A stretch of 64,000 bases of DNA from Alphaproteobacteria bacterium 40-19 (GTDB taxonomy: Bacteria > Pseudomonadota > Alphaproteobacteria > Holosporales > Holosporaceae): the NCBI GenBank assembly GCA_001898075.1, contig MKSD01000001.1, positions 796,108 through 860,107 on the forward strand. The letters are read 5' to 3'. Positions 20,005 through 45,063 of the stretch are shown here, piece after piece. The position numbers and the translations under genes are program-made. Position 1 is the first letter of the stretch; the number at the start of each line of letters is the position of its first letter. The notes under the pieces are model-generated. The model had not been told where the DNA came from, searched no databases, and saw only the letters and a program-made list of their open reading frames with translations.

Positions 20005-20005
20005 C

Positions 20006-21631
20006 TTATACTCCTATAACCCGCTGAATTTCCTGCAAAGAGGTGATACCCCTGGCTGCCAATTGCAGGCCTTTTGCTTGAAGGTCTACAAAACCTTTTT
20101 CACAAAGCATCTGTTTAATGTAGGTATAAGAATGGCCTTTTAAGATTCGTTCTTCTATATCTGGGGTCATGATTAAAATTTCCGCTACGACTGTGCGGCC
20201 ACGATATCCTCTGCCTTGACATAGAGGACAGCCTTTTGCTTTATAAAAAGAGCCTTGAAGCTTGATCTCGGGGTCTGGTTCTTTACAATGAGTACATAAA
20301 ATACGTACCAATCGTTGGGATATTACCCCATTCAGCAGTCCTGAAATCAAAGACATAGGGATCTTGAATTCCATCAGGCGGTAAATAACGCCCAAAGCAT
20401 GAACAGTGTGCAGAGTTGTCAAGACACTATGACCTGTCATAGCAGCCCGGATAGCAGAATACGCTACATCTTCATGTCGAATTTCACCAATTAAAATGAC
20501 GTCGGGATCTTGACGCAGTAAGGATTGAACTCCCTTAGAAAAAGTCAAGACCCCTCCTTCTTTGATCTCTGTCTGACGGATACCGGGAACCACATACTCG
20601 ATGGGCTCTTCTAAGGTCATAATGTTTTGTTCTTTGAAATTCAAAAGTGAAAGCATGGCGTATAAAGAAGTTGTCTTTCCGCAGCCTGTGGGGCCTGTTA
20701 AGACCAACAGTCCTTCAGGTTTTTGTAGTAAAAGTTTAATGGCCTCGTACTCTTGGGGGCTATAACCTAATTCAGCCAAAGACTTAAGTCCTTTTTCTTT
20801 TTGTAACAAGCGCAGTACGATGTTTTCCCCGTAATGGGTAGGGTGACAGGATGCGCGAATATCCAGCGTTTGTCCTATAAGTGAAAGGGAAAAACGGCCA
20901 TCTTGAGGACGACGTGTTTCCCCAATATCCATCTGAGATAAAACTTTGAGCTGTATGCATACGCTACTCCAAAGTGAAATGTGGAAACAACAGGCGGTTT
21001 CTAAAACGCCATCACAGCGCAAACGCACCCGAACAAATAATTTTTGAGGCTCGAAATGAATGTCAGAGCTGCCTTGGATAATCGCTTTTTGAATAAGATC
21101 CTTTAAAAAATGACTAATAACCTGATCATCCTGTTTAAGTTGTTGAGAGAAAGAGGTCTGAAAATCTGGGGCACCTTGTCCTTTATGTAAAAGTGTTAAT
21201 ATTTCTGAGCGGACTCCTAGTGCTAACTGCAGGTGTAAACCATTTTTCAAGCAACACCGAAGGGTGTCTTGCCCTTTTAGATCAGATAAATCGGCGATAA
21301 CCACTGTTAAAGTATTTCCATCACAGTGAAACGGTACAGCGCAACAAGTCCAAGCTACTTCTATAGGAAGATACTCCCAAGGAAGTGTTTCAAAAGCAGC
21401 CGCTTTCAGGCTTTGAAACGGGATCTTGTTGGCATGAGCAAAAAAACGTACCACTGATTCTTCTTCAAAATTTTCTAGGTCTAGTAAAATTTTTTCTAAT
21501 CTTCGGCCGGTTTTTTTATGCTCATGCAGAAGAATGCGTTGCTGATCTACATCGATCAGGCCTTGGCCCAATAAAAAGTCCATTAACCGCTCCTCTTCAG
21601 ATGAGAAACGATCAAAAACCAACCAAGACAT
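20006..21631 (-). CDS. type II secretion / type IV pilus assembly ATPase (GspE/PilB family)
   Basis: 541 residues, close to GspE/PilB length. The order is an N-terminal MshEN-like domain (1-150), Walker A GPTGCGKT (313-320), an Asp box (MTLEEPIEY), Walker B around DPDVILIGEIR (376-386), a His box (TGHSVLTTLHT) and a zinc-binding tetracysteine at Cys446, Cys449, Cys468 and Cys471. All the parts needed for ATP hydrolysis are present. It powers extension of a pilus or pseudopilus; T2SS and T4P forms cannot be told apart here. It heads a five-gene minus-strand operon. A secretin, pseudopilins and prepilin peptidase are not in the window. Confidence 0.92.
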   Translation of the reverse strand: MSWLVFDRFSSEEERLMDFLLGQGLIDVDQQRILLHEHKKTGRRLEKILLDLENFEEESVVRFFAHANKIPFQSLKAAAFETLPWEYLPIEVAWTCCAVPFHCDGNTLTVVIADLSDLKGQDTLRCCLKNGLHLQLALGVRSEILTLLHKGQGAPDFQTSFSQQLKQDDQVISHFLKDLIQKAIIQGSSDIHFEPQKLFVRVRLRCDGVLETACCFHISLWSSVCIQLKVLSQMDIGETRRPQDGRFSLSLIGQTLDIRASCHPTHYGENIVLRLLQKEKGLKSLAELGYSPQEYEAIKLLLQKPEGLLVLTGPTGCGKTTSLYAMLSLLNFKEQNIMTLEEPIEYVVPGIRQTEIKEGGVLTFSKGVQSLLRQDPDVILIGEIRHEDVAYSAIRAAMTGHSVLTTLHTVHALGVIYRLMEFKIPMSLISGLLNGVISQRLVRILCTHCKEPDPEIKLQGSFYKAKGCPLCQGRGYRGRTVVAEILIMTPDIEERILKGHSYTYIKQMLCEKGFVDLQAKGLQLAARGITSLQEIQRVIGV

Positions 21632-24311: not shown

Positions 24312-24898
24312 AAAAAGGCACTGCCCTGCGGGAGGCTCGTTTCATTAAAAGCGTCTTTGAACTGGGCAAATTACCAGCGCCCTTAGGAAAGGAAGTCGCT
24401 TTTTGGGGTCGCTCTAATGTAGGGAAATCCTCTTTGATGAATCGCTTGATGCAGGCTAAAGACCTGGTTAAAGTTTCTAAGACCCCTGGGTGCACTCAGT
24501 CTGTTAATTTTTTTCAGATTGGCAGTAATCTTTTCTTGGTGGATTTACCAGGGTATGGATACGCAAAAGTTCCCCATCACCTGCAGGTTTTATGGATTGA
24601 CTTAGTATCAGGTTATTTGGCAACACGGGAAAATCTGCGGCATGTTTTTTTGCTTTTGGACAGCCGTCATGAATTAAAAGACTTGGATCAACAAGCTATT
24701 GAGTTTTTAGCTTCCTGCAGGCTTTCTTTTTCTTTGGTTTTGACCAAAGTTGATAAAATTTCTGACAGTCTTTTAGCTCAGCATAGGACCTTTTTACAAG
24801 AGCGTTTTGCAGGGATTGATGTCTATTACAGTAGCGCTGAAAAAGGGTGGGGGATGGCAGAAATTCAGCGAAAGCTTATCAAGGAGGCAAAGGTATGA
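24308..24898 (+). CDS. engB: ribosome biogenesis GTPase EngB/YihA/YsxC
   Basis: 196-residue TrmE-Era-EngA-EngB family GTPase needed for large-subunit assembly. The G1 motif is GRSNVGKSSLMN, G2 falls around the KTPGCTQSVNFF stretch, G3 is DLPGYGYAK, G4 is TKVDK and G5 is YYSSAEKGWG. It overlaps both neighbours by four bases (ATGA), forming a coupled series yidC - small ORF - engB - MFS gene. Confidence 0.95.
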   Translation: MKKGTALREARFIKSVFELGKLPAPLGKEVAFWGRSNVGKSSLMNRLMQAKDLVKVSKTPGCTQSVNFFQIGSNLFLVDLPGYGYAKVPHHLQVLWIDLVSGYLATRENLRHVFLLLDSRHELKDLDQQAIEFLASCRLSFSLVLTKVDKISDSLLAQHRTFLQERFAGIDVYYSSAEKGWGMAEIQRKLIKEAKV

Positions 24899-26160
24899 AA
24901 ATTTCCACGTCTCATAGAACAATTCCTAAAATTTCACCTTCCGTGTGGGCTTTAAGTCTGGGAATGTTTTTTTTAAATTTCGCTTCCATGATGATCTTTA
25001 CGTGCATGCCTTTGTTACCGCTGTGTTTTCCAATTAAGGCCAGTGCTGTGGGTTGCATAGAGGGGTTTGGAGAAGGTTTTGCGTATCTTGTGCGAGCCTT
25101 TGCAGGCTCTTTGAGTGATTTTTTTCAAAAACGAAAGAAATTTCTTTTATGGGGATACGGAACCTGTTTGCTGGCAAGGTTTTGTCTGGTTTGGGCGCAT
25201 TCGATGAATCTGATTGTTTTGGCGCGTCTTTTGGAAAAATTAGGTAATGGCATGCAGGGCAGCCCCCGGGAAGCCTTGATCCGAGATATGTCAAATCCTG
25301 TTGTGTTAGGGCGCTCGTATGGCTTAAATAAAGCTCTGGGGATGTTAGGTTCGGCCTTAGGGGGCGGAGTTTTGGTATGGGTGTTTTATTATTACAGTGA
25401 TCACCTGCCTTCTCTTTTAAAATATATTTTTGGGGTTGCGGTAGGGCTGTCTTTTTGTAGTTTTTTACTGCTTTTTTATAATGTCAAAGAACCCTCCTTA
25501 AAGTCCCCAAAGCCAACCGTTCCGACCCCTTTTATTATTCGTTATAAAAAATTTTTGGGGGAAGTCAGATCTTTTCCCATCAATTTTTGGAAGGCTCTGG
25601 TGATGTCTTTTTTCTTAAAGACGGGGTACTTTAGCGGATCCTTCATGGTGTCCTATGTCATGGTACAAAAATTTGAGACTTTTTTAGGGTTGTCTACAAA
25701 AAATAAGCCTTTAATGAGTGCAAGTGTGTTGGCCTTTCAAATTTTTATCAGCACACTTTTTTCTTATCCTGCAGGGTTATTGGCGGATCTGAAAAGTCGG
25801 CGCACCGTATTAGGATTGGGGACGGTGGCTCTGTTGGGGTCTTTGGGGTGCTTTGGTTTTGGATCTGGGTCTGCCTTTTGGATCACACTGGGGGTGCTAT
25901 TATACGGCATTCAATACGGCATGCAAGGGGTTCTTTTATCGTGTATGTCTTGTACCATGCCTTTGCGACTGCAAGGGACAGGATTTGGTATATTTTTTGT
26001 CGTCGCAGGCCTGGCGATTATTTTTTCAAATGCGTACATTATGGAACCTCTCTGGGATCCAAACCCCGAGCGTGCTTTTTTAATGGTTGGAATTCCTGTT
26101 CTGATTTCTTTGATTTTATTGCCATTTATTTCTTTTAAAGGGGAGGAGCATGACGCGTAG
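24895..26160 (+). CDS. MFS transporter (first of a tandem pair)
   Basis: 421 residues from the ATG at 24895, chosen because ATGA overlaps the engB stop; the open frame reaches back to 24847. About 12 hydrophobic segments. The loop after the second helix has the MFS basic motif in the form GSLSDFFQKRKKFLLWGYG, and the fourth/fifth helix region has KLGNGMQGSPREALIRDM, an arrangement seen in an MFS group with GxGxxxxPRxAL. The substrate cannot be read from sequence. It is a clear paralogue of the next gene, sharing for example YFSGxFMVxYVM and SCTMPxRLQGTGFGxFF. Confidence 0.85.
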   Translation: MKISTSHRTIPKISPSVWALSLGMFFLNFASMMIFTCMPLLPLCFPIKASAVGCIEGFGEGFAYLVRAFAGSLSDFFQKRKKFLLWGYGTCLLARFCLVWAHSMNLIVLARLLEKLGNGMQGSPREALIRDMSNPVVLGRSYGLNKALGMLGSALGGGVLVWVFYYYSDHLPSLLKYIFGVAVGLSFCSFLLLFYNVKEPSLKSPKPTVPTPFIIRYKKFLGEVRSFPINFWKALVMSFFLKTGYFSGSFMVSYVMVQKFETFLGLSTKNKPLMSASVLAFQIFISTLFSYPAGLLADLKSRRTVLGLGTVALLGSLGCFGFGSGSAFWITLGVLLYGIQYGMQGVLLSCMSCTMPLRLQGTGFGIFFVVAGLAIIFSNAYIMEPLWDPNPERAFLMVGIPVLISLILLPFISFKGEEHDA

Positions 26161-26196: not shown

Positions 26197-27474
26197 ATGA
26201 TGAATTCAGTGTCATCTGATCAAAAAACTTATCGGTTCTTGTGGGGAATTCCTGCTCCTGTATGGTTTTTAAGTATTGGTATGTTTTGTCTAAACCTTTC
26301 TTCAGTTATGGTTTTTATTTGTATGACTTTACTGACTAAAATGTTTTCAGTTCGTACCAGTCAGCTGGGCAGCTTGGAAGGCGTGGTCGATGGTTTTTCT
26401 TTACTAATGAGAGCTTTTTCCGGACTGTTGAGTGATTTTGTGCGAAAACGAAAACGATTTTTACTTTTGGGATACGCTATTTGTTTTTTTGCTCGATTCT
26501 TACTGGCAATTGCCAAGGTATTTGATGTGGTCGTATTTTCCCGACTTCTGGAAAAAGTAGGAAATGGAATGCAAGCCAGTCCCCGAGAGGCGTTGATTGG
26601 AGATGTCACTCCCAGCACTTCGTTGGGGCGGGCCTATGGGTTGAATAAGACCTTTGGGATGTTGGGTTCTAGTTTGGGGAGCCTATTATTGCTGGGGCTG
26701 TTTTATTGGAATGAGCATTTTGATTTACGTAAGATTTTTCTTTTCGCAGCACTGATGGCAGGAGTTAGTTTTTTTCTATTATGGGTGGGGGTAAAAGAAC
26801 CCCCTTTTTCTTATCCACCTCATCAAGCTTCTGTTTTACTTTCTCAACGATTCCAAGTTTTTCTGGGGGAACTGAAAGAGTTTTCCAAAGATTTCTGGAA
26901 GGCAACAACCATGTGTTTCTTTTTAAAGATGGGGTATTTCAGCGGAATTTTTATGGTGACTTACGTGATGGCGCAGCAATTTCAAACTTTTTTGGGTTTT
27001 AGCACCAGTAATAAACCATTGATGAGCGCGGCAGTCCTTTCTTTACAAAATTGCTTGTGTGCTTTGTTTTCTTACCCAGGAGGATATTTATCTGATTTAA
27101 AAGATCGACGGTTGACAGTCTTTTTAGGCATGATATGTCTTTTAAGTTCAATGCTTTCCTTTGGATTGGGAAAGGGATCAGCTTTTTGGATGGTAATAGG
27201 GATTATTTTTTATGGTTTGCAATATAGCATGCAAGGGGCTTTGATGGCTTTTATGTCTTGCACTATGCCTGTGCGATTGCAGGGAACAGGATTTGGTTTG
27301 TTTTTTATTACCTCGGGGATTTCAATGATCCTTTCCAATCTGTTTATCATGAATACCGTGTGGGACATCTATTCACCGTCAACGGCTTTTTTGGTCGTCT
27401 GCGTGCCGGTTACCATTGCTTTGATTATTTTGCCCTTTATTAAGATGAGTAAAGGAGCCGATAAAGTTGCGTGA
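26197..27474 (+). CDS. MFS transporter (second of a tandem pair)
   Basis: 425 residues, about 12 membrane segments. It has the same landmarks as its upstream neighbour: SGLLSDFVRKRKRFLLLGYA, KVGNGMQASPREALIGD, LGRAYGLNKTFGMLGSSLG, KMGYFSGIFMVTYVMAQQF and SCTMPVRLQGTGFGLFF. A ribosome site (GGAGG) lies about 10 bases before the start, with a second ATG one codon in. The pair looks like an old local duplication kept side by side, so the two may have different substrates or work as partners. Intracellular bacteria often keep such transporters to import host metabolites (inference). Confidence 0.85.
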   Translation: MMNSVSSDQKTYRFLWGIPAPVWFLSIGMFCLNLSSVMVFICMTLLTKMFSVRTSQLGSLEGVVDGFSLLMRAFSGLLSDFVRKRKRFLLLGYAICFFARFLLAIAKVFDVVVFSRLLEKVGNGMQASPREALIGDVTPSTSLGRAYGLNKTFGMLGSSLGSLLLLGLFYWNEHFDLRKIFLFAALMAGVSFFLLWVGVKEPPFSYPPHQASVLLSQRFQVFLGELKEFSKDFWKATTMCFFLKMGYFSGIFMVTYVMAQQFQTFLGFSTSNKPLMSAAVLSLQNCLCALFSYPGGYLSDLKDRRLTVFLGMICLLSSMLSFGLGKGSAFWMVIGIIFYGLQYSMQGALMAFMSCTMPVRLQGTGFGLFFITSGISMILSNLFIMNTVWDIYSPSTAFLVVCVPVTIALIILPFIKMSKGADKVA

Positions 27475-28741: not shown

Positions 28742-28808
28742 ATGTATTTGTTTACAATTGTCTTGGTGCATGTTACCCTTGCCGTGAAGTTTATTGGTGG
28801 ATGGAATT

Positions 28809-30029
28809 ATGAAATTGACTCTAAAAAATATTGTCTCGGTGTTGTTTTTGGCGACCTCTTCTGTTCAAGCGGTGCGGTTAGAAGTGAAGAGTAGCTCGCT
28901 TTGGACAAAGTTTCGTCGCTGGGCCCGGCGGGTTTTTTCTCCTGCTTTTTTTGCTTTGGCGAATTTGGTTCCAGGACGTGTTCATTCAGTACAATTAGAG
29001 GTGGGCGTTCCTGAGGGGAGTGAGGAAAAAGAAGCTTTCAGTTTTAAGGCTGGTCCTGATCCTATGTTAGAGGAAGGCAGTATCTTGCCTGCTGGTATAG
29101 AGGGCTGTCAGGCAATGAGAATTGAAGATTTATATTCTAGTCACCAAGATCGTTGGCTAAAAGTTATCGAGCATATGAAAGCTAGGGAGCTTTCTTTTCC
29201 AATATTATCTTTTGATCCCAAAGCAGAGTCCTTGAATGGTTTAAACCAGCTTTTATCATTTATTTCAGATAAACCTCAGGTTCAAGTGCAATGTTTTCAA
29301 GAAAATGTAACACGTCATTTTGATTTTAAGAATTGTTTTTGGGGGAGCCTGTTGGCCAAAGGACCTAATTTGTGCGTAGAAAAATGTTCTGTCTTCTTGG
29401 ATGATTTTTTTGATAGAGCTCCTGTCCGCACAGATTATTTGGTAAGTTTTTCCGATTGTGAGTTTACTGGTACTGATCTTTATCCTTTAATGTGCTTAAA
29501 AGGATTTGGACGAGATCGTAAGGGGAGCCTAGAATTTTGGTCAGAGCAAAAAGAAAAGGATTCCGAAATTCTTTTTGGGTTGCGAGGAAATTTTTTACCC
29601 CTTAAAGAAGAGGTCAAAATTGCTATTTTAGATAAAAAAAACCCTCAACTCTTTCTGCGTTTTGATTTTACAAAAAAGAAAATTTTGTTAAATATTCCGA
29701 TGTTAGCTAAGATGATGCTGAAAGAGCTGGGCAATATTTCTGTTATCAATCAAGAGGCCATGAATCTGTTTTCTAAGCTTAGTAAGCGGTTAGATTTAAC
29801 AACAGAGCAACGTAAAATGCTGTCTGATCTTTTATCTAAAAAAGATAAAAATGAAAACAAGACTTTTGAAAGTATTCGCAATAAGTTTTTGGAAGTTTTT
29901 GAAAAGGATAAGCAGCTTCAGAATACATCGTCTCTAAATTCAGATTTTGACGATCGACGTTCTGTGTATTCAAAAGTTCCTTTAAAAAACACTATTAAGG
30001 AAGATTCAGATCATTCTCAAGATCTTTAA
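28809..30029 (+). CDS. exported protein of unknown function
   Basis: 406 residues from the ATG at 28809 (a TTG at 28794 is also open). The N-terminus is a typical Sec signal (MKLTLKNIVSVLFLATSSVQA, cut after VQA). The body has no recognised domain. Its Cys-rich middle (VQVQCFQENV, KNCFWGS, PNLCVEKCSVFLDD, SDCEF) may form disulfides or a beta-helix-like fold, and a charged helical C-terminus runs from about 310. It is flanked by tgt and a bidirectional terminator. A surface or secreted protein is likely; host-interaction roles are speculation. Confidence 0.6.
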   Translation: MKLTLKNIVSVLFLATSSVQAVRLEVKSSSLWTKFRRWARRVFSPAFFALANLVPGRVHSVQLEVGVPEGSEEKEAFSFKAGPDPMLEEGSILPAGIEGCQAMRIEDLYSSHQDRWLKVIEHMKARELSFPILSFDPKAESLNGLNQLLSFISDKPQVQVQCFQENVTRHFDFKNCFWGSLLAKGPNLCVEKCSVFLDDFFDRAPVRTDYLVSFSDCEFTGTDLYPLMCLKGFGRDRKGSLEFWSEQKEKDSEILFGLRGNFLPLKEEVKIAILDKKNPQLFLRFDFTKKKILLNIPMLAKMMLKELGNISVINQEAMNLFSKLSKRLDLTTEQRKMLSDLLSKKDKNENKTFESIRNKFLEVFEKDKQLQNTSSLNSDFDDRRSVYSKVPLKNTIKEDSDHSQDL

Positions 30030-34498: not shown

Positions 34499-35488
34499 TC
34501 AAGACTCTTTCTTGGAGGCGTCAGAGTTGCGGCTAAAATAATTTTTTACTTTCTCTGTTTGTTCTTTTAAACAATTTATTGCTTTCTCTTTCCATTCCTT
34601 TAGTTTTTGACAACAGTATTGTTGAGTAAGGTTTCCAGGGGAGGTTTGGGCTATCTCTTCGATGAGGGCCTGGCTGGAGGAACTGTTGGAAGAGGCGTTT
34701 TCTTCTGAAATTTTGACCTCAAGCAGTGGTTTTTCTTCGTGTTCTGAAGAGCTTTCGGATTCGGCCTCTTTTGGTTCTTTTATTTTTTCTTTGAATCTTC
34801 TGTTTTTTGATAGCTTTTGCAGATCATCAAAGGGGTTTTTATATTGTCGTTGATATTCTGTTTTTGCTTCTTTAGGAACCGAACGAGTTGTTTTCTGGGG
34901 ATTTGTTGTCTCACGCAACTGCTTTTCATCCAAGATCGGATAAAAGGAGTGGTACCCGTTTTCTTGTAATTTAACTTGAACCTGGTTGTAGGGGCCTTGG
35001 TACCATTGTTTTTTATAAAAATCAAATGTATATCCTGTTCCAAAGTACTGGCCTGGTTTAGGGTTATCCAGTGTTATGAGGTAGTTATTTCGTCCGTTAA
35101 CCTGGATGGATTCAACGTTCTGGGGATCGCAAAATTTTTCTATTAGCGTTGTGATGCTCTGTTTGTTCCGCGTAGGATCATCGAGGTTCTCTTTTAGGCC
35201 AAAAGAGCTTGTGATTTCTTTTTCTTCCGTTTTACCTGAGCCGCGGAATAAGTTATTTTCGGGTGAAGCAAAAAGATGGGCATATAAACGATGCTTTACA
35301 GAAATTTCCTGATAATTCAAGAGACTATTCTTAACTTTTTTTAAAGTTTCAAGCGCCCCTTTGACGTCTTCAGTCCATTGTTTGTTTGCCAAAGAAGTTG
35401 CTTGGGCATCTGCCGTTAAAAGGATGATCCCCCATGCTGCTGCATAAAATTTATTCACTGTTTTTAAGGCTAGAAGATGTTCTTTCAC
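34499..35488 (-). CDS. exported protein with acidic, serine-rich region, unknown function
   Basis: 329 residues. The N-terminus (residues 1-30, KTVNKFYAAAWGIILLTADAQA) looks like a signal peptide cut after AQA. The middle (about 100-190) is Tyr/Asn/Gly-rich (GRNNYLITLDNPKPGQYFGTGYTFDFYKKQWYQGP) and may be a small beta domain. Residues about 235-275 are low-complexity Glu/Ser, followed by a helical, Lys-rich C-terminus. No family recognised. A second exported orphan lies just downstream of its own promoter region, and the GC content is like that of the neighbours. Confidence 0.6.
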   Translation of the reverse strand: MKEHLLALKTVNKFYAAAWGIILLTADAQATSLANKQWTEDVKGALETLKKVKNSLLNYQEISVKHRLYAHLFASPENNLFRGSGKTEEKEITSSFGLKENLDDPTRNKQSITTLIEKFCDPQNVESIQVNGRNNYLITLDNPKPGQYFGTGYTFDFYKKQWYQGPYNQVQVKLQENGYHSFYPILDEKQLRETTNPQKTTRSVPKEAKTEYQRQYKNPFDDLQKLSKNRRFKEKIKEPKEAESESSSEHEEKPLLEVKISEENASSNSSSSQALIEEIAQTSPGNLTQQYCCQKLKEWKEKAINCLKEQTEKVKNYFSRNSDASKKES

Positions 35489-35532: not shown

Positions 35533-36153
35533 TTATTTTTCTTCCTGATCCCAGAAAATAGGATACCCGGACAGAGATATTTCCAGATCCTCCTTCTTCA
35601 CGCGAACAATAGTCTCGGCTATTTTTCCTACAACATTTCCATAGCCAATCCATTCTCCTATCTGATAATCGCCCTGTCGTTCTTGAACACTCCAAAGAGT
35701 TTGCTTTTTTGCATCCGGTGGCACACCGCCGTCCTGCCCCAAAAGGCTGATATCTTTTTCCCACAGATTTGTAAAACGCTCTAAAACCACAGACCGGACA
35801 TCTTTAAAAAGGTCTGGGTTAAAGTGGGGATTTTTCGCAAAATCTGGAATATAGCAGCCCATATGGTCTGACAGTGTCTCTTTCCAAAGATTTTTAGGAA
35901 GATCGTCCTTGATTTCTAGAGTTGTTAATTTGGAAGGAACAATGAGGTCATCTTGCACAGAAACGAAAAAGTCAAAAAAACCACTTTTGGCCAAGTTTTC
36001 CTGGTTTAAGGACTGAGGCAAATGCTGATGTAAGGGTTCTGGGGGTAAAGTTTTTTTTTCAGGAAAGAAATAGGATGAAACAGAAGACCACCATCCGGCG
36101 GAACACTGGGGGGAAGTTAATATTCCCAAGACAATGATAAAATGACGCAACAT
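35533..36153 (-). CDS. exported protein of unknown function
   Basis: 206 residues with a short signal peptide (MLRHFIIVLGILTSPQCSA, cut after CSA or SAG). The mature part is rich in Trp and Pro and contains PDFAKNPHFNPDLFKDV, VVLERFTNLWEKDISLL and a C-terminal VGKIAETIVRVKKEDLEISLSG strand pattern. No family recognised. It is 44 bases upstream of the other exported orphan gene on the same strand; they may form an operon. Confidence 0.6.
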   Translation of the reverse strand: MLRHFIIVLGILTSPQCSAGWWSSVSSYFFPEKKTLPPEPLHQHLPQSLNQENLAKSGFFDFFVSVQDDLIVPSKLTTLEIKDDLPKNLWKETLSDHMGCYIPDFAKNPHFNPDLFKDVRSVVLERFTNLWEKDISLLGQDGGVPPDAKKQTLWSVQERQGDYQIGEWIGYGNVVGKIAETIVRVKKEDLEISLSGYPIFWDQEEK

Positions 36154-38027: not shown

Positions 38028-38960
38028 GTGAAAGAAAATATTGTAAAAATTATTGTATCTGGCAGTAGCTGTTCTGAATGGGCGTTATCTTTGGCTGCAA
38101 GTTTGGAGATTGCCGGGGTGCAAGCTCAGAGTCACTTTTTTTGTCACCGCGAATTGTGCGTCAAGCTGACCCAGTCTTTAGAGATGAAAGATGTTTTTTT
38201 GGTGCAGTCGTTCTGTGATACAGTCAATGATTATTTGGTCGAATTGGCTTTACTGGCGGACTTGGTGCGAGGGCAAGGGGCGTTGAAAGTGACAGCTCTT
38301 ATCCCTTACTTGGCGTATGGTCGACAAAATAAACCTCAGCCTGCCCAGTCTACAGCTCTGGAAGTAGTGGTGAAGATGTTAAAAGCTGTGGGAATTGATC
38401 AAATTGTGACTTTGGACGCTCATGGGCCTCCTTTTCAAAATTTGTCTTCTGACTCTTCTTTGATTTCTTCACCTTTGGTTTCTTTATCTTGTGCACCACT
38501 TTTTGCCCAGGCTTTTAGACATCAATACGATTCCTGTTTGCAAGACTGGGTGGTGGTGGCTCCGGATCAAGGGGGGCAGAGGCGAGCATCCGAAGTGGCT
38601 GAGTGTTTGAATTTACCGTGGGTGATGATGGAAAAAAAACGCTTTAATGAAGGAGAGGCAGAAGAAATTTGCCAGGTTCAACAGATCAAAGGGGATGTGC
38701 AGAATAAAAATTGTTTTATCATTGACGATCTTGCAGACACAGGGGGTACTTTACGGGCTGTAGTAAAGGCCTTAAAAGCGGCGGGGGCATTAAAAGTTAT
38801 TGCAGGAGTCACCCATGTTTTAGACTTTACAAAAATTCAGGATTGTGGTCTGCATTTTTTGTTTATGACAGATACTTTTCTTTCTGTTTGTCCCGTAGAT
38901 TCCTGGGTTAAAGTCCTTTCTTGCCAAAGTATTTTTGAAGATTTTTTAAGAAAAATTTAA
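38028..38960 (+). CDS. divergent ribose-phosphate diphosphokinase (PRPP synthetase-like)
   Basis: 310 residues from a GTG preceded by AAGAGG. The fold is that of Prs: an N-terminal phosphoribosyltransferase-like domain with IPYLAYGRQNKPQP (ATP loop, usually YARQDR), TLDAHGPPFQNL (His of the catalytic site), VVAPDQGGQRRA, and the PRPP loop IIDDLADTGGTL. All key blocks exist but each deviates from the standard Prs sequence. It should make PRPP from ribose 5-phosphate, or be a Prs-like enzyme with changed properties. It ends 60 bases before the TPP riboswitch and is not obviously under its control. Confidence 0.72.
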   Translation: MKENIVKIIVSGSSCSEWALSLAASLEIAGVQAQSHFFCHRELCVKLTQSLEMKDVFLVQSFCDTVNDYLVELALLADLVRGQGALKVTALIPYLAYGRQNKPQPAQSTALEVVVKMLKAVGIDQIVTLDAHGPPFQNLSSDSSLISSPLVSLSCAPLFAQAFRHQYDSCLQDWVVVAPDQGGQRRASEVAECLNLPWVMMEKKRFNEGEAEEICQVQQIKGDVQNKNCFIIDDLADTGGTLRAVVKALKAAGALKVIAGVTHVLDFTKIQDCGLHFLFMTDTFLSVCPVDSWVKVLSCQSIFEDFLRKI

Positions 38961-39020
38961 GATATTTCTCATAACCTCTTGACTTTCATTAAGTTAGGAT
39001 TATTCTTAAAAAGGATATTA

Positions 39021-39100
39021 TTCGCCGGGGGTGCTGCCTGCAAAGGTTGGCTGAGAAATACCCTTAAAACCTGCTCTGGTTAATGCCTGCGAAGGGAGTG
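39021..39100 (+). ncRNA. TPP riboswitch (THI box)
   Basis: The thiamine diphosphate aptamer is unmistakable: GGGGGTGCTGCC, GGCTGAGAAATACCC (pyrimidine-sensor arm), then ACCTGCTCTGGTTAATGCC and GCGAAGGGA (pyrophosphate arm). It precedes thiE and the whole salvage/tenA series. TPP binding should switch the downstream genes off. Confidence 0.95.
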
Positions 39101-39158
39101 TGAAAATACAAAAAGCACTTTTTGATGAGGGTGTTCTTTTGTTTTTTTCGTTTATTCC

Positions 39159-39178
39159 TTTCCTTTATTAAAAGGAAA
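39159..39178 (+). promoter_or_regulatory. Shine-Dalgarno-masking hairpin before thiE
   Basis: TTTCCTTT (39159-39166) and AAAGGAAA (39171-39178) form a perfect 8-bp stem around ATTA. The AAGGA inside the 3' arm is a good ribosome site seven bases before the GTG at 39185. It looks like the expression platform: translation is off when the stem forms. Confidence 0.6.
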
Positions 39179-39184
39179 ACGACT

Positions 39185-39829
39185 GTGAAACAATTTTTAA
39201 AACTTATGCTTGTAACAAATCGCTCTAGTGCGCCTCTGGAAGGGTACTTAGAATTCGTGAAATGTTGTGCTCAGGCTGGTGTGACAGCCGTTCAGTTAAG
39301 AGAAAAGCGCTTTTCAGTGCATGAATTGATTGATTTTGGCAAAAAACTACGTCTTTTACTTCATCCATTTTCTGTTCCGTTAATTATCAACGATCGTGTA
39401 GATATTTGTTTGGAAGTTGATGGGCAAGGTGTTCACTTAGGTCAAGAGGATGGCAATGTATTAGAGGCTCGAAGACGTTTGGGGGATCACCGTATTTTGG
39501 GTTTGACGGTCAACAGTTTGACCGAAGTTCAAAAGGCCAATGATTTACCCCTAGATTATGTGGGTTTAGGAGCCATCTTTCCCACTTCCAGTAAGCCTGC
39601 AGTGCGGACAATTTGGGGATTAGAGGGACTTAGGCAAGCGTCGACTTTTTCCCGCCATCCTATTATTGCGATCGGAGGTATCCAGGAAAAGCACGTCAAA
39701 TTGGTGATGGAGGCAGGAGCCCGAGGTATTGCAGCCATTGGGATGTTTCATGAAGCTTTAGATCCGAAGAAAACGGTCGAAAATCTGCGGCATATTATGG
39801 AGGCAAGAGAGCATGTTGCAACGAATTAA
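39185..39829 (+). CDS. thiE: thiamine-phosphate synthase
   Basis: Joins HMP pyrophosphate and thiazole phosphate into thiamine phosphate. About 214 residues from the GTG at 39185, which sits seven bases after AAGGA; an upstream ATG at 39125 would add a hydrophobic stretch encoded by the riboswitch platform. Family motifs: AGVTAVQLREK, FSVPLIINDRVDICLEVDGQGVHLGQEDG, LGLTVNSLTEV, YVGLGAIFPTSSKP and HPIIAIGGI. First gene behind the TPP riboswitch; overlaps thiM by 17 bases. Confidence 0.94.
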   Translation: MKQFLKLMLVTNRSSAPLEGYLEFVKCCAQAGVTAVQLREKRFSVHELIDFGKKLRLLLHPFSVPLIINDRVDICLEVDGQGVHLGQEDGNVLEARRRLGDHRILGLTVNSLTEVQKANDLPLDYVGLGAIFPTSSKPAVRTIWGLEGLRQASTFSRHPIIAIGGIQEKHVKLVMEAGARGIAAIGMFHEALDPKKTVENLRHIMEAREHVATN

Positions 39830-40625
39830 TGTGGAATTAGAAAAAATTCGAGTTAAAAAACCTCTGATTTTAAACTTTACAAATATGGTCACCATGGAAT
39901 TTGTTGCTAATACGCTCCTTTCCTTGGGGGCAGCCCCTTTGATGAGTGTGTCAGAACAAGAAGTAGAAGATCTGGTTTCTTTGGCCCATGGGGTTTGTAT
40001 TAATATTGGCACTTTGGATGAGCGTTTTGTACAGTGTTGTTTGGCTGCTGCTCAGATGGCACAAGCTTTGGGAAAGCCTTTGATCTTAGATCCTGTGGGG
40101 GCAGGGGCCAGTCGTCTTCGTACTCAAGCAGCGCTTCAGTTATTGCCCTATGCCAACGTCGTGCGCGGGAATGCAACAGAAATTTTGGCTCTTTCTGGTA
40201 TTGAGGTTGAGAGTCTGGGTGCAGAGTCAATGCACCGACCTCAAGAAGCGCGGGAAACCGCCGTACAGGTGGCCCGAAAAGTAGGATGTGTGGTGGTCGT
40301 CAGCGGATCTCAGGATTGGGTGACGGATGGATCTCAGGAAGAAAGTGTTGAATTCGGCTCTCCGGTGATGTCTTTGGTGACAGGAATGGGATGTGCTTTA
40401 TCTGCAGGAATTGCAGCCTTTATGGCTGTAAATGGAGAAGCTTTTCCCAGTGCTTTGTGGGCGACGCGCTATTTTGGTCTTTGTGGTCAGTACGCAGCGC
40501 GTAAAGCTGCACATCCTGGGTGCTTTCGTGCTGCTTTTACAGATGCGCTTCATCAGGGATTAAGAGCTCAAGGCGATGAATTTTCACATATTTTCTACAA
40601 TTGCTTTGATGCTCGCGTCAAGTAA
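39813..40625 (+). CDS. thiM: hydroxyethylthiazole kinase
   Basis: Phosphorylates the thiazole alcohol, a salvage step. 270 residues. Signatures are LNFTNMVTMEFVANTLLSLGAAPLMS, NIGTLDE, KPLILDPVGAGASRLRT, VVRGNATEILALSG, and the catalytic Cys in the anion hole GMGCALSA. A dedicated salvage enzyme means thiazole is expected from outside or from broken-down thiamine; no thiG, thiS, thiH or thiO gene is in the window. Confidence 0.95.
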   Translation: MLQRINVELEKIRVKKPLILNFTNMVTMEFVANTLLSLGAAPLMSVSEQEVEDLVSLAHGVCINIGTLDERFVQCCLAAAQMAQALGKPLILDPVGAGASRLRTQAALQLLPYANVVRGNATEILALSGIEVESLGAESMHRPQEARETAVQVARKVGCVVVVSGSQDWVTDGSQEESVEFGSPVMSLVTGMGCALSAGIAAFMAVNGEAFPSALWATRYFGLCGQYAARKAAHPGCFRAAFTDALHQGLRAQGDEFSHIFYNCFDARVK

Positions 40626-40640
40626 AAAGGGGGACATGAC

Positions 40641-41603
40641 ATGTTTTCTGAAAGAGAGATGGTGGCCTCTTTGGTCAGCCGATTTCCCTCCTATATTGGG
40701 GATGATGCAGCACTTTTAACGGGGGCAGATTCTTTATCTTGGGTTATTACCAAAGATTTGTTAGCGGAAGGAGTGCATTTTAGAACGCGTTATTTTTCCC
40801 CAAAAGACTTGGCTCATAAAGCCTTACAGGTTAATTTAAGTGATATTGCCGCTATGGGGGGGCAAGCTCGTTTTATTTTGTGTGGCGTCAGTATTCCTGC
40901 AGGGTTGGAAGAGTATGGGCGGCATTTTTTGGAATCCCTGGCTCAGCAGTGTCGGACTCAAGGGATCGCGTTGGTGGGGGGGGATATGACCCGATCTTGC
41001 CAAGACTTTTTTATCAGTGTGACAGCTTTGGGAGTTGTGCTGGCAGATCAGGGTAAGAAAAGATCTACTGCGGAAAAAGGTGATTTTGTTTGTGTGGCAG
41101 GTAAAATCGGAGACGCTTTTTTAGGGTTGTGTGCTTTAGAAGGTGAAATAGAAGGGTTATGTTCCTTTAAGGATCATTTTTTAAAGCCTTGGGCTCATTT
41201 GGCGCAAGGGCGATGGTTGGCTCAGTATCCCGGAGTCACCAGTATGATGGATCTTTCTGATGGTTTGTGGGTGGACCTGGATAAATTAGGTCAGGCGAGT
41301 CAGTTGGGAAGCTGCTTAAATTTAGATGACATTGAATATAGAGATGATTTTTTAGAGGCCTGCCAACGACTCAGTATTGATCCTTTAGAAGCTTTTTTAA
41401 CAGGAGGAGAAGACTATAGTCTGTTGTTCACGGTCAAACCAGAGGCCTGGGATGACTTGCAAGCAGGGTTTTTGAGGAATTTTGCCCTTCCTTTACGGCG
41501 CGTGGGGCAGATGGTGCCAGACTTGGGGGTGGACTTTTCTGGTAAACGCAGTCCAGAAGTTTACAAGTTTAAACCCTTTAGTCATTTTGGAGAAGGGAGA
41601 TGA
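40641..41603 (+). CDS. thiL: thiamine-monophosphate kinase
   Basis: Makes thiamine diphosphate, the active cofactor, from thiamine phosphate. 320 residues, AIR-synthase-like fold: IGDDAALL, ITKDLLAEGVHF, LAHKALQVNLSDIAAMGG, LVGGDMTRS, and SMMDLSDGLWVDLDKL near 210-220. It starts 15 bases after thiM with a GGGGG ribosome site and overlaps thiD by four bases. Confidence 0.95.
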   Translation: MFSEREMVASLVSRFPSYIGDDAALLTGADSLSWVITKDLLAEGVHFRTRYFSPKDLAHKALQVNLSDIAAMGGQARFILCGVSIPAGLEEYGRHFLESLAQQCRTQGIALVGGDMTRSCQDFFISVTALGVVLADQGKKRSTAEKGDFVCVAGKIGDAFLGLCALEGEIEGLCSFKDHFLKPWAHLAQGRWLAQYPGVTSMMDLSDGLWVDLDKLGQASQLGSCLNLDDIEYRDDFLEACQRLSIDPLEAFLTGGEDYSLLFTVKPEAWDDLQAGFLRNFALPLRRVGQMVPDLGVDFSGKRSPEVYKFKPFSHFGEGR

Positions 41604-42394
41604 AATATTTTTGCTTGTCGATTGCCGGATTTGATGGTTCCGGAGGAGCGGGGATTCAGGCAGATTTAAAAACATTTTCAGCTCTGGGGTGTTACGGTAT
41701 GACGGTGTTGACAGCTTTACCAATTCAGAATACGACCGGGGTGAAGTCTTGTTATCCTTTATCTGCTTCCTGTGTGTTGGATCAATTAGAGACTTTGTTT
41801 GAGGACATGCGTCCCTCCGGCATCAAGATTGGTATGTTGGGAGGTCCAGAAGTGGTGACAGCAGTGGCTAAATTTTTAAAAAAGCAAGCTTCTGGGATTC
41901 CTATTGTTTTAGATCCTGTCATGAGTGCCAAAAATGCAGCGACTCTTTTGACTGCTGAAGGTGTAGAAGTGTTACGTTCCCAGCTTATACCTTATGTGAC
42001 TTTGTTGACGCCCAATGTGCCCGAGGCTGAGTGTCTAGCACAGCAAACAGGGTTGATGAGTGATCTGGCTCGTAAGATTCAAGCTATGGGACCTAAAGCG
42101 GTTTTGATCAAAGGGGGGCATGCAGATGGCCCTTACTGTGATGATGTTTTGTGCGATAAGGACGGAGAGTTGTATTGGATTGAAGGTGAGCGCGTGGATT
42201 CCAAGAATACTCATGGGACAGGCTGCACTTTATCTGCGGCTATTGTGGCTTATTTGGCTCGGGGAGATCCGCTTCGTTCTGCCTGTTGCAAAGCTAAAAG
42301 ATACCTATCTGGGGCTTTGTGGGCGGCTAAAGACCTAACCTTAGGGAAAGGTCGTGGACCGTTAAATCATTTTTTCAATGGGGTTAGCCCTTAA
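41600..42394 (+). CDS. thiD: hydroxymethylpyrimidine / HMP-phosphate kinase
   Basis: Phosphorylates HMP twice to HMP pyrophosphate for ThiE. 264 residues of the ribokinase fold: GFDGSGGAGIQADLKTFSALGCYG, TALPIQNTTGV, IKIGMLG, PIVLDPVMSAKNAATLL, TPNVPEAECLA, VLIKGGHADG and NTHGTGCTLSAAIVAYLA with the catalytic Cys. It completes the set thiE-thiM-thiL-thiD and is coupled to thiL by ATGA. Confidence 0.96.
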   Translation: MKYFCLSIAGFDGSGGAGIQADLKTFSALGCYGMTVLTALPIQNTTGVKSCYPLSASCVLDQLETLFEDMRPSGIKIGMLGGPEVVTAVAKFLKKQASGIPIVLDPVMSAKNAATLLTAEGVEVLRSQLIPYVTLLTPNVPEAECLAQQTGLMSDLARKIQAMGPKAVLIKGGHADGPYCDDVLCDKDGELYWIEGERVDSKNTHGTGCTLSAAIVAYLARGDPLRSACCKAKRYLSGALWAAKDLTLGKGRGPLNHFFNGVSP

Positions 42395-42409
42395 TTTTAG
42401 AAGAAGGCA

Positions 42410-43216
42410 ATGATGAAAACTTTATTTTTTACTTTGTTAACCGTTGGCTTTATCTCAACTCAAGTTTGGGGAAAGCCCACAAAAGAAACAAGTGTATCAG
42501 GAGAAAAAAAATTTTTTGATGTGACATTTAATTCTTGTCAAAAGGTTTTAAATCAGATTAAAGAGATGCCATTTGTTCAGGAATTACTAAAAGGAAATCT
42601 TTGTGAAGAGCGTTTTTCTTATTATATTTTGCAAGATATACCTTATCTGGATAAACTGGCGCAGCAGAGGGCTACTTTGGCAAAACTGCTGGAAGAAGCC
42701 CAGTTAGAGGAGCCTGCAAACCTGTTGGCTAAAAATGCTGAAGGACTAAAAATATTTGCGAAAAAAAAACCAGAAGATGTATTTCAGGTTTATTGCAAGG
42801 GAACTTTTAAATATCAAACAGGCACAATTCCTTGTTTAGAAGCTTACTTACAGCATCAAACAGACTCTTTAAAAAAAGGGCCAGCCTGTGGTGCTGCAGC
42901 TTTAAACCCTTGTCCGGTGGTTTACAATTGGTTAGCGAATGAGCTTGGATCTTTATCGCCAAAAGGAAACAAGTATCAGAAGTGGGTCGATAGTTATGCT
43001 AAACCTGAGTATGACGAAAAAGCAGCCTTTTGGAAGGAAATTTATAATACCTTAGCAGACAAGGTATCCATCGCAGAACGTCTGTTGATGAAGAAAGTTT
43101 TCCAAAAGAGCGTCAAGTATGAATACGATTTTTTTGATCAGTCTTATGATAAAGTAGATGGAACAGGATCATCTAAATGTATCAGCGTTGGTTCTAAAAA
43201 AACAAAGGAGGAATAG
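42410..43216 (+). CDS. exported TenA/thiaminase II-fold protein 1
   Basis: 268 residues. It starts with a signal peptide (MMKTLFFTLLTVGFISTQVWG). The body is TenA-like and all-helical: MPFVQELLKGNLCEERFSYY, then Asp76 in YYILQDIPYL, the catalytic-type Cys168 in LNPCPVVYNWL, YQKWVDSYA, and Glu238 near the C-terminus (VKYEYDFFDQSY). These match Asp44, Cys135 and Glu205 of B. subtilis TenA. TenA hydrolyses aminopyrimidine thiamine breakdown products, or thiamine, to HMP. Typical TenA is cytoplasmic, so the leader is unusual. It lies 15 bases after thiD with an AGAAGG ribosome site. Extra Cys pairs (C43, C65, C129, C142, C160) could form disulfides. Export is predicted, not proven. Confidence 0.8.
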   Translation: MMKTLFFTLLTVGFISTQVWGKPTKETSVSGEKKFFDVTFNSCQKVLNQIKEMPFVQELLKGNLCEERFSYYILQDIPYLDKLAQQRATLAKLLEEAQLEEPANLLAKNAEGLKIFAKKKPEDVFQVYCKGTFKYQTGTIPCLEAYLQHQTDSLKKGPACGAAALNPCPVVYNWLANELGSLSPKGNKYQKWVDSYAKPEYDEKAAFWKEIYNTLADKVSIAERLLMKKVFQKSVKYEYDFFDQSYDKVDGTGSSKCISVGSKKTKEE

Positions 43217-43218
43217 AG

Positions 43219-44046
43219 ATGAACATGTATCGTATTTTAAGTGTAGTGTTGGGTTTAACTTTTGGACAGCAAGGCGTTGCAATAGAGATAGCAGAAGATT
43301 CTTTGGAAAAAGTTCGCGAATTAGAAAGAATTTTATTAGACTTGCCAAAAGATCACGTCTATTCAAAAAAACAGAGTTTGTTTAAACAAGCTGTTGCTAA
43401 ATCTCAAGCAATAATGGAAATGATTAAGGATCATCCTTATAATTTTGAGCTGGCTAAAGGTACGTTAACATACAAGAAGTTTTCCTATTATCTTTCCCAG
43501 GACGCTGTTTTTTTGGCTAAAACAGGTAAATTAATGGCTGTATTAGCGTCTAGGATGCCTTTTAAATATCGTGCTATTTATTTAAATACTGCCTTAGATC
43601 CTGAGTACCATAAAACAGTGATCCATGGTGCGGAAGGTATGTTTAAAAAGTTTGTTGACCCTAAAAGTGCAGCTAAATTTATTTCTGATGACAGACATAC
43701 TCCAGCTTTACACAGTTACGTAGATTTTTTGTCTTCTGTAGTATCTCATGAGCCCGTTGAAGTGGCGGTAGCGGCTTTTTTGCCGTGTCCTTGGGTCTAT
43801 AATAAACTAGCTAATCATCTAAAAGAACAGGCCGATCCTCAGACTCCCTTTTATGGATGGATTAAACAATTCACTTCCTATGGTTCGCAGTACGTTGAAA
43901 ATATGAGTAAGATTTTCGATGAGCTGGCAGATAATGCCAGTGACGAGGTGCGCAGTCGGATGGTAGAAGCTTTTGTAAAAGGGGTGATCTTAGAATGGCG
44001 TTTGTGGGATGACGCTTATCATGGGCGCTCTTTTTTCCCCCAGTAA
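43219..44046 (+). CDS. exported TenA/thiaminase II-fold protein 2
   Basis: 275 residues with an apparent, somewhat weak signal peptide (MNMYRILSVVLGLTFGQQGVA). The TenA landmarks are Asp95 in YYLSQDAVFL, Cys190 in FLPCPWVYNKLA, YGWIKQFTSY and Glu259 in ILEWRLWDDAYH. The part between about 30 and 65 is an extra helical stretch. A strong ribosome site (AAAGGAGGAATAGAG) lies in the end of the first tenA-like gene, two bases separating the frames. It is clearly homologous to its neighbours but not close, so the triplication is old. Substrate unknown; thiamine-derived pyrimidines are the family expectation. Confidence 0.78.
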   Translation: MNMYRILSVVLGLTFGQQGVAIEIAEDSLEKVRELERILLDLPKDHVYSKKQSLFKQAVAKSQAIMEMIKDHPYNFELAKGTLTYKKFSYYLSQDAVFLAKTGKLMAVLASRMPFKYRAIYLNTALDPEYHKTVIHGAEGMFKKFVDPKSAAKFISDDRHTPALHSYVDFLSSVVSHEPVEVAVAAFLPCPWVYNKLANHLKEQADPQTPFYGWIKQFTSYGSQYVENMSKIFDELADNASDEVRSRMVEAFVKGVILEWRLWDDAYHGRSFFPQ

Positions 44047-44124
44047 GAATTTTTTTACCTTGAGTCCTAGATATTAAGGAAGATGTTTGTTAAAATTCGA
44101 AAAAATGAGGTTAATGATTTGTAA

Positions 44125-45063
44125 ATGAGTCTATTTTTTATTTCAAAATTTTGCACCTTAGTAGGTGTTTTTGTGTTTGCCAAACCTTTATGGGCCACAT
44201 GGCTGTTGCAAGATTTGACGACATTTGAGCAATGGGTTGAGGGGCAAGAGTCTTTTCAGGAAAAAGTTAACAAGGTTCCTTCTGAAAAAGAGGTAGAAAA
44301 TAAAAAAGAGTCTGGGTTTAGGAAAAAACTCTTTGAATACGCCAAGAAATATGTTCACGAAATGATGGATTTACCCTTTGTTAAAGGGATTGAAAAAAAA
44401 AGCTTAACAGCGGAACAGTGGGCTTATTATCTTTTTCATGATTATGGCTTTTTAGAAGAGGTCAGCTATGTCTCTCTCAAAGTTGCGACTGATGCTTGTC
44501 AATTCCGTCAAAACGGCCTAAAAGATTTTCTTTTGAAGATGCATAATGATGTTAGTACCATGACGAAAGGGTGGAAAGATAGGTTTAAAATTTTAGTTAA
44601 AGATTACTCGGGAGAAGAATGGAATTCCAATTGTTTTTCCAAAGAAATGTCTGCAAAAGAAAAGTATTCGGATTTTTTGTCTCGTCTTGCTAGATACCCG
44701 GACTTTGTTGCTTTTTTACCCTGTTATTTGAGTTATTTTGTAATTGCTAAAAAATTTAGTTTTGAGCATACATCTGCGGGGTTACCTGAAACAGAATTGT
44801 CACCTTGGGTTTTATACAATAGTGATCCAGAGGTTGAAAAGGACATAAGGACAATGATTAATTTTGCAGCTCAATTATATAATACAAAAAACAAGTGTGT
44901 TATGGAGCGTATTTTAAAAGAAGCTTTCAGACATGAAGTAGCTTTTTTTCGAGATTCTTTTTTTGAAAAGACCACTGCACCGTCCTGTTCTGATGAAAAT
45001 ATTACACCAAAAAGAGTAAGCTGCCGCACTTTAGATTTAACCAAAGAACCTGATTCGCAATAG
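44125..45063 (+). CDS. exported TenA-like protein 3 (divergent)
   Basis: 312 residues. A hydrophobic N-terminus (residues 3-25, ending KPLWATW) is probably a signal peptide. A charged linker (about 45-68) precedes the TenA-like domain: MDLPFVKGIEKKSLTAEQWAYY, Asp106 in YYLFHDYGFL, Cys200 in FLPCYLSYFV, and Glu271 in FRHEVAFFRDSF. It is the most diverged copy: the YxxWI motif has become SPWVLYN and a 24-residue tail follows. It comes 78 bases after the second copy and may have a weaker ribosome site. It could be an enzyme with altered specificity or a binding protein. Confidence 0.68.
   Translation: MSLFFISKFCTLVGVFVFAKPLWATWLLQDLTTFEQWVEGQESFQEKVNKVPSEKEVENKKESGFRKKLFEYAKKYVHEMMDLPFVKGIEKKSLTAEQWAYYLFHDYGFLEEVSYVSLKVATDACQFRQNGLKDFLLKMHNDVSTMTKGWKDRFKILVKDYSGEEWNSNCFSKEMSAKEKYSDFLSRLARYPDFVAFLPCYLSYFVIAKKFSFEHTSAGLPETELSPWVLYNSDPEVEKDIRTMINFAAQLYNTKNKCVMERILKEAFRHEVAFFRDSFFEKTTAPSCSDENITPKRVSCRTLDLTKEPDSQ

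What the first reader, a model, noticed from the sequence alone, without database searches (positions are those of the whole stretch)
39021..45063. TPP riboswitch followed by a thiamine-rebuilding operon and three exported TenA-fold genes
A TPP aptamer precedes thiE, thiM, thiL and thiD, then three consecutive TenA (thiaminase II)-fold genes, all in one direction with gaps of at most 78 bases. Each TenA-like protein begins with an apparent signal peptide, whereas known TenA acts in the cytoplasm. All keep the Asp, Cys and Glu that correspond to the B. subtilis TenA active site (D76/C168/E238, D95/C190/E259, D106/C200/E271). ThiM, ThiD and ThiE are exactly the enzymes needed to re-join the two halves of thiamine. 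Inferred model: host thiamine, or its breakdown products, is cut or processed outside the cytoplasm, the HMP and thiazole are imported, and the cofactor is rebuilt inside. No thiC or thiG is here, so the cell probably depends on salvage.
Basis: partly seen in the sequence, partly recalled or inferred. Interest (0 to 1): 0.88.

Follow-up and report, generated by a model that had tools for sequence, protein, structure and literature searches.

The report
Three exported TenA enzymes, thiamine salvage
A protist-symbiont relative that cannot make vitamin B1 from scratch carries, in its vitamin-B1-controlled rebuilding operon, three copies of a normally internal vitamin-splitting enzyme that all appear to be sent outside the cytoplasm, suggesting it takes host vitamin apart outside and reassembles it inside.

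Summary
A TPP riboswitch (39017-39115, 59 bits) precedes thiE-thiM-thiL-thiD and three TenA-family genes. The window lies in a single-contig 988-kb genome from the alphaproteobacterial family of 'Candidatus Finniella' (Holosporales). Each TenA has a signal-peptide-like N-terminus; by the same criterion 0 of 50 other TenA-family proteins do. AlphaFold models of TenA1 and TenA3 best match solved TenA structures. Asp44, Tyr112, Cys135, Tyr139 and Glu205 (B. subtilis numbering) are kept in all three, but Tyr163 is Phe in TenA2 and Asn in TenA3. Searches of the genome found no ThiC, ThiG, thiamine pyrophosphokinase or ThiK. The only known route to TPP encoded is therefore HMP + hydroxyethylthiazole through ThiD/ThiM/ThiE/ThiL, and thiamine could be used only after being split. 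A Finniella MAG has the same riboswitch operon with one signal-less TenA after thiD, so the exported trio looks like a lineage-specific relocation and expansion of a cytosolic salvage enzyme. Extracytoplasmic thiamine cleavage followed by internal rebuilding is the best-supported reading, but export, activity, substrate and import are unshown, and no HMP/thiazole transporter was identified. It is a new variant of a known kind, not a new system.

The parts
39017..39115 (+). TPP riboswitch aptamer (RF00059)
   Evidence: cmscan 59.0 bits, gathering 54.3; canonical CTGAGA and TGCCTGCGAAGGGA elements readable in the sequence; only copy in the genome
39108..39149 (+). putative expression platform: terminator-like hairpin followed by a T run
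   Evidence: fold -11.3 kcal/mol, z -3.3, 0 of 200 shuffles as stable, then UUUUUUU; function inferred. The pattern scan did not list it (low G+C stem)
39185..39829 (+). thiE, thiamine-phosphate synthase (ORF opens at TTG 39122; likely start GTG 39185)
   Evidence: PF02581 7.9e-53, TIGR00693 over cut-off, profile begins at residue 28 of the long ORF
39813..40625 (+). thiM, hydroxyethylthiazole kinase
   Evidence: PF02110 6.7e-69; NF006830 over cut-off
40641..41603 (+). thiL, thiamine-phosphate kinase
   Evidence: TIGR01379 225.8 bits over cut-off
41600..42394 (+). thiD, HMP/HMP-P kinase
   Evidence: TIGR00097 277.9 bits over cut-off; PF08543
42410..43216 (+). tenA1: signal-peptide-like N-terminus (MMKTLFFTLLTVGFISTQVWG^KP) + TenA domain; keeps all seven checked active-site positions
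   Evidence: PF03070 60 bits; AlphaFold pLDDT 82.6; Foldseek best B. subtilis TenA 4.4e-9; residues; ribosome-binding AGAAGG just upstream of the ATG
43219..44046 (+). tenA2: signal-peptide-like N-terminus (MNMYRILSVVLGLTFGQQGVA^IE) + TenA domain; likely ortholog of Finniella TenA; Y47F and Y163F
   Evidence: PF03070 79 bits; 38% identity to Finniella TenA; tree 81/92; GGAGG before the ATG
44125..45063 (+). tenA3: signal-peptide-like N-terminus (MSLFFISKFCTLVGVFVFAKPLWA) + long linker + very diverged TenA domain; Y47F and Y163N
   Evidence: PF03070 24.7 bits; AlphaFold pLDDT 67.2, core blocks mostly 75-90; Foldseek best B. subtilis/H. pylori TenA 4.4e-6; residues

Best explanation
An obligately salvaging, probably protist-associated alphaproteobacterium makes its TPP only by joining HMP and hydroxyethylthiazole (HET). 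A TPP riboswitch turns on thiE-thiM-thiL-thiD and three Sec-exported TenA (thiaminase II, Cys-type) paralogues when TPP runs low. Outside the cytoplasm (periplasm or beyond) at least TenA1 and TenA2 hydrolyse thiamine, and probably amino-HMP, to HMP and HET. Unidentified permeases bring the halves in. ThiD makes HMP-PP, ThiM makes HET-P, ThiE joins them to thiamine phosphate and ThiL makes TPP. Shown by sequence or computation: riboswitch, gene identities, TenA fold, catalytic residues, signal-like N-termini, absence of ThiC/ThiG/TPK/ThiK hits. Inferred: export, hydrolysis, substrate, uptake, host source.
For: Riboswitch and operon. No ThiC in the order and no ThiG in this genome. No TPK and no ThiK, so intact thiamine has no known direct route to TPP. 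Signal-like N-termini 3/3 against 0/50 other family members, with ribosome-binding motifs placing the starts of TenA1 and TenA2 at the signal-bearing ATG. TenA fold by AlphaFold and Foldseek. D44, Y112, C135, Y139 and E205 kept in all three although TenA3 is only about 20% identical to the others. A Finniella MAG has the same riboswitch operon with one signal-less TenA directly after thiD, and thiD-tenA linkage recurs in other alphaproteobacteria, tying the trio to salvage by ancestry.
Against: No HMP, HET or thiamine transporter was found: the one sub-cut-off NMT1 hit is a polar-amino-acid ABC system by its sequence, and only one transporter family was searched. Signal peptides were called by a home-made heuristic, not a trained predictor. 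Tyr163 is invariant in the 36 comparison sequences but lost in TenA2 and TenA3, so their activity may differ. Three paralogues evolving unusually fast is more than a simple thiaminase needs. No activity, localisation or substrate data exist.
Confidence: 0.5

Rival explanations
1. Extracytoplasmic processing of thiamine breakdown products. The exported TenAs hydrolyse amino-HMP (or, less likely, formylamino-HMP) to HMP outside the cell; thiamine itself is not the main substrate, and HET is obtained from elsewhere.
For: TenA_C, the Cys isoform kept here, is described as converting amino-HMP (AmMP) to HMP (PMC10470507). My own knowledge: for B. subtilis TenA amino-HMP is a better substrate than thiamine.
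Against: ThiM sits in the operon, implying that HET is salvaged too, which thiamine cleavage supplies stoichiometrically; with no TPK or ThiK, thiamine itself is otherwise unusable.
Confidence: 0.2
2. Host-directed secreted thiaminases: the TenAs pass the outer membrane and lower host (or competitor) thiamine, with salvage of the halves as a by-product.
For: T2SS/T4P-type genes in the window (PF00437, PF00482) and three secretins in the genome; B. thetaiotaomicron TenA is selectively packaged into extracellular vesicles (PMC10277260); three fast-evolving copies.
Against: The genes lie in a TPP-riboswitch salvage operon, so they are made when the bacterium itself is short of TPP; no evidence of outer-membrane passage; the secretion genes may build a pilus (MshEN domain).
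Confidence: 0.12
3. Sub-functionalised trio: one exported enzyme (TenA1 or TenA2) plus TenA-fold proteins such as TenA3 repurposed as periplasmic HMP or thiamine binding proteins or as another activity.
For: TenA3 barely passes the Pfam cut-off, has the longest branch, and lacks Y163 and Y47; no classical substrate-binding protein for HMP was found.
Against: TenA3 still keeps D, Y112, C, Y139 and E despite about 20% identity, unexpected for a non-catalytic protein.
Confidence: 0.13
4. Ordinary cytosolic TenA salvage: the hydrophobic N-termini are not functional signals (or the proteins start downstream).
For: No trained signal predictor was available; hydrophobic N-termini can mislead. Finniella's TenA in the same place has no signal.
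Against: Three diverged paralogues all carry a basic n-region, a hydrophobic core and a small-residue cleavage motif; 0 of 50 relatives do; for each protein the next Met lies inside the TenA domain.
Confidence: 0.05

Closest known systems
TenA / thiaminase II (PF03070; TIGR04306), B. subtilis TenA
   Same: Fold, catalytic Asp44/Tyr112/Cys135/Tyr139/Glu205, linkage to thi salvage genes
   Different: Signal-peptide-like N-termini, three tandem copies, strong divergence below the NCBIfam equivalog cut-off, Y163 replaced in two of three
Finniella-type operon thiE-thiM-thiL-thiD-tenA under a TPP riboswitch (MAG CAMCZV010000004.1)
   Same: Same gene order, riboswitch, position of tenA, same GTDB family; enzymes 40-57% identical
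   Different: One TenA of 221 aa without a signal instead of three exported ones
Base-degraded thiamin salvage (B. subtilis ThiXYZ-YlmB-TenA)
   Same: TenA releases HMP, which ThiD then phosphorylates
   Different: No ThiY-like NMT1 protein found; TenA is predicted to act outside, before import, rather than after it
Secreted thiaminase I (Paenibacillus, myxobacteria) and vesicle-borne BtTenA of B. thetaiotaomicron
   Same: A thiamine-splitting enzyme acting outside the cytoplasm (PMC5627462, PMC10499793, PMC10277260)
   Different: Thiaminase I is a different family; BtTenA's vesicle route is shown experimentally, while here export is predicted and tied to a rebuilding operon

Membership tests
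TenA / thiaminase II | TENA_THI-4 profile above the curated cut-off | tested here: met
   60.0, 79.0, 24.7 bits against 22
TenA / thiaminase II | NCBIfam equivalog TIGR04306 cut-off (130 bits) | tested here: not met
   87.8, 104.8, 34.6 bits
TenA / thiaminase II | TenA fold | tested here: met
   AlphaFold and Foldseek for TenA1 and TenA3; TenA2 by sequence, 3e-17 to 1to9
TenA / thiaminase II | Catalytic Asp44, Cys135, Glu205 and supporting Tyr112, Tyr139 | tested here: met
   All three proteins
TenA / thiaminase II | Tyr163 | tested here: not met
   Kept in TenA1; F218 in TenA2, N232 in TenA3; Tyr in all 36 comparison sequences
TenA / thiaminase II | Cytosolic (no signal peptide) | tested here: not met
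   Signal-like N-termini in all three; 0 of 50 relatives; heuristic only
TenA / thiaminase II | Hydrolysis of thiamine or amino-HMP | not testable with these tools
   needs enzyme assay
TPP riboswitch (RF00059) | Score above the gathering threshold and position before thi genes | tested here: met
   59.0 against 54.3 bits, directly upstream of thiE
Thiamine salvage-only metabolism | No ThiC and no ThiG | tested here: met
   No ThiC match in any genome of the order; none to ThiG in own genome; both families found in control genomes
Thiamine salvage-only metabolism | No direct thiamine kinase route (TPK, ThiK) | tested here: met
   other kinase families not excluded
Thiamine salvage-only metabolism | Import of HMP and HET | tested here: inconclusive
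   NMT1 searched only, no member over cut-off; other transporter families not searched

The most novel reading that the evidence does not exclude
Extracytoplasmic thiamine disassembly as a nutrient-uptake strategy: a symbiont splits thiamine outside its cytoplasm with three Sec-exported TenA paralogues, imports both halves, and rebuilds the cofactor inside under TPP-riboswitch control.
Probability: 0.45. Interest if true: 0.78.

Novelty: new variant of a known kind. Interest (0 to 1): 0.62.

Why it matters
TenA is usually described as a cytosolic clean-up enzyme. A riboswitch-controlled set of exported TenAs next to a complete rejoining pathway, in a cell with no known way to use intact thiamine, would show that a vitamin can be taken up by being dismantled outside and rebuilt inside. 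It would also offer a concrete, testable view of how protist symbionts draw a cofactor from their hosts, and of how a cytosolic enzyme is relocated by gaining a signal peptide.

Tried and rejected
Naming relatives with TenA2 alone in genome contigs gave nothing; an alignment query found only Finniella and Maribacter. Members of the wider PF03070 family in the class without the TenA pattern were used only as signal-peptide controls. Weak ThiG matches in the relatives cover only part of the profile in ORFs of 345-395 aa and are probably other TIM barrels; none is in this genome. The one NMT1 hit is a polar-amino-acid ABC transporter by its sequence. The tree's grouping of TenA1 with TenA3 (80/94) is treated as possible long-branch attraction; whether the exported trio has one origin is not resolved. 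No paper in the held library was found describing a TenA with a signal peptide, which is weak evidence of absence.
Full report
What is there. The window is positions 796108-860107 of a single-contig 988,388-base genome. Rfam's TPP aptamer scores 59.0 bits at 39017-39115 (gathering 54.3) and is the only one in the genome. Just downstream is a hairpin of -11.3 kcal/mol (z -3.3, none of 200 shuffles as stable) ending in a run of seven U, a plausible terminator-type expression platform (inference). Then follow, all on the + strand, thiE, thiM, thiL and thiD, each confirmed by Pfam and NCBIfam, and three ORFs of the TenA family at 42410-43216, 43219-44046 and 44125-45063, with PF03070 scores of 60.0, 79.0 and 24.7 bits (cut-off 22). 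Intergenic gaps are 15, 2 and 78 bases before the three tenA genes.

Organism. A member of the same GTDB family (handle G004) carries the operon on a contig of 147,550 bases; the search for related loci match is contig CAMCZV010000004.1 of the same length, titled MAG 'Candidatus Finniella inopinata'. NCBI places that genus in Holosporales, Ca. Paracaedibacteraceae, a group bound to eukaryotic, mostly protist, hosts (PMC11909080).

Fold and active site. With a five-sequence alignment, AlphaFold gives TenA1 at pLDDT 82.6 and TenA3 at 67.2, with most core blocks at 75-90 and the N-terminal 60 and C-terminal 30 residues of low confidence. Foldseek's best PDB matches are B. subtilis and H. pylori TenA for both (4.4e-9 and 4.4e-6). 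TenA2 matches B. subtilis TenA by sequence (3e-17). Aligned to B. subtilis TenA and 36 other family members, Asp44, Tyr112, Cys135, Tyr139 and Glu205 are present in all three; position 47 is Tyr/Phe/Phe, as in the others (16 Phe, 20 Tyr); position 163 is Tyr in TenA1 and in every comparison sequence but Phe in TenA2 and Asn in TenA3. Retention of five catalytic-site residues in TenA3, which is about 20% identical to the rest, argues that it is still an enzyme.

Export. A simple heuristic (basic n-region, 9-residue hydrophobic core without charges, small residues at -3 and -1) scores TenA1, 2 and 3 at 3.28, 3.69 and 3.95. In the same window cytosolic proteins score nothing, or 2.59 for ThiD, while the other proteins it calls are two membrane proteins (YidC, FtsH) and four ORFs that look exported (3.66-4.87). 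Allowing every possible start codon, none of 39 other TenA ORFs and none of 12 further PF03070-family ORFs reached the criterion; one ORF, L029, is in both lists, so 50 distinct proteins. Shine-Dalgarno-like AGAAGG and GGAGG lie just upstream of the signal-bearing ATGs of TenA1 and TenA2, and the next Met of each protein falls inside the TenA domain. Export is thus well predicted but not demonstrated, and no trained predictor was available.

Metabolic context. No ThiC match exists in any of the 10 genomes of the order, and none to ThiG in this one; both families were found in the control genomes. There is no thiamine pyrophosphokinase and no ThiK-like sequence. With ThiD, ThiM, ThiE and ThiL present, the only known route to TPP is HMP + HET to thiamine phosphate to TPP. 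Free thiamine, whatever its source, would be usable only after cleavage into those two halves, the reaction TenA is known for. The gap in it is transport: the one NMT1 (ThiY-type) hit was below cut-off and is a polar-amino-acid ABC system by its sequence, and other transporter families were not searched.

Comparative anatomy. In Finniella the operon is TPP riboswitch-thiE-thiM-thiL-thiD-tenA with one 221-residue TenA without a signal. Another family member, G007, has thiE-thiM-thiL-thiD without tenA and with no riboswitch hit. The other genomes of the order have no TenA. Elsewhere in the class thiD-tenA linkage is common, for example thiM-thiD-tenA in G229 and thiL-thiD-tenA in G041. In a class-wide sample of 385 genomes no other genome had three adjacent TenA matches; two, G221 and G126, had two close together and were not examined. 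ThiE, ThiM, ThiL and ThiD are 40-57% identical to Finniella's, TenA2 38%, TenA1 28%, and TenA3 has no meaningful pairwise match. The tree places TenA2 with Finniella's TenA (81/92) and gives the exported copies the longest branches (2.8, 3.8 and 10 against a median of 0.64), so their placement and single origin are not certain. The simplest history, inferred, is that the ancestral cytosolic TenA after thiD gained a signal peptide, was duplicated, and diverged quickly.

Beyond the periplasm? The window holds T2SS/T4P-type genes (PF00437 at 20006-21631, PF00482 at 18835-20004) and the genome has three secretin ORFs, so passage through the outer membrane is possible. An MshEN domain in the ATPase makes a pilus-like machine as likely as a T2SS.

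Literature. TenA_C, the Cys isoform, is described as converting amino-HMP (AmMP) to HMP (PMC10470507). B. thetaiotaomicron TenA is packaged into extracellular vesicles and was assayed for thiaminase activity (PMC10277260). Rickettsia, lacking all thiamine enzymes, must import TPP (PMC5615194), which is the alternative lifestyle for relatives without the operon. Searches of the held library for TenA with signal peptides, periplasm or secretion returned no such case in the papers listed.

Verdict. The model of outside cleavage and inside rebuilding is the best reading at about 0.5, with amino-HMP processing, host-directed secretion and partial repurposing as the main rivals. It is a new variant of a known kind.

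Noticed in passing
window 16960-21631 (-): Cluster of a T2SS/T4P-type ATPase (with MshEN domain), an inner-membrane F protein and two unannotated membrane-anchored proteins in GspL/GspM-like positions; three secretin ORFs lie elsewhere in the genome (near 777 kb and 305-307 kb). Could be a T2SS or a pilus in a Holosporales-type bacterium.
   Followed up: partly
window 28794-30029 (+), 34499-35488 (-), 35533-36153 (-): Three proteins with signal-like N-termini and no Pfam match; possible exported symbiont-specific proteins.
   Followed up: partly
window 24847-26160 and 26197-27474 (+): Two tandem MFS transporters of unknown substrate; possible but unlinked candidates for vitamin or precursor uptake.
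   Followed up: no
window 39122-39184: The thiE ORF opens at TTG 39122, but the likely start is GTG 39185; the extra 21 codons overlap the riboswitch expression platform.
   Followed up: yes
L046 1504-2175 (G229) and L048 76-771 (G041): Signal-less TenA directly after thiD in two other alphaproteobacterial families, supporting thiD-tenA as a recurrent salvage pair.
   Followed up: partly
G221:C1:2175151-2176535, G126:C76:2036-3971 and G291 (four places): Other alphaproteobacterial genomes with two or more TenA-like matches, adjacent in G221 and near each other in G126; their N-termini were not examined because loci were not fetched.
   Followed up: no
window 38028-38960 (+): A ribose-phosphate pyrophosphokinase-like ORF (named from its sequence, not searched) ends just upstream of the riboswitch.
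   Followed up: no
L033 12575-13165: Tandem 'NEQGLGGK' repeat stretch downstream of the Finniella thi operon, open in both strands.
   Followed up: no
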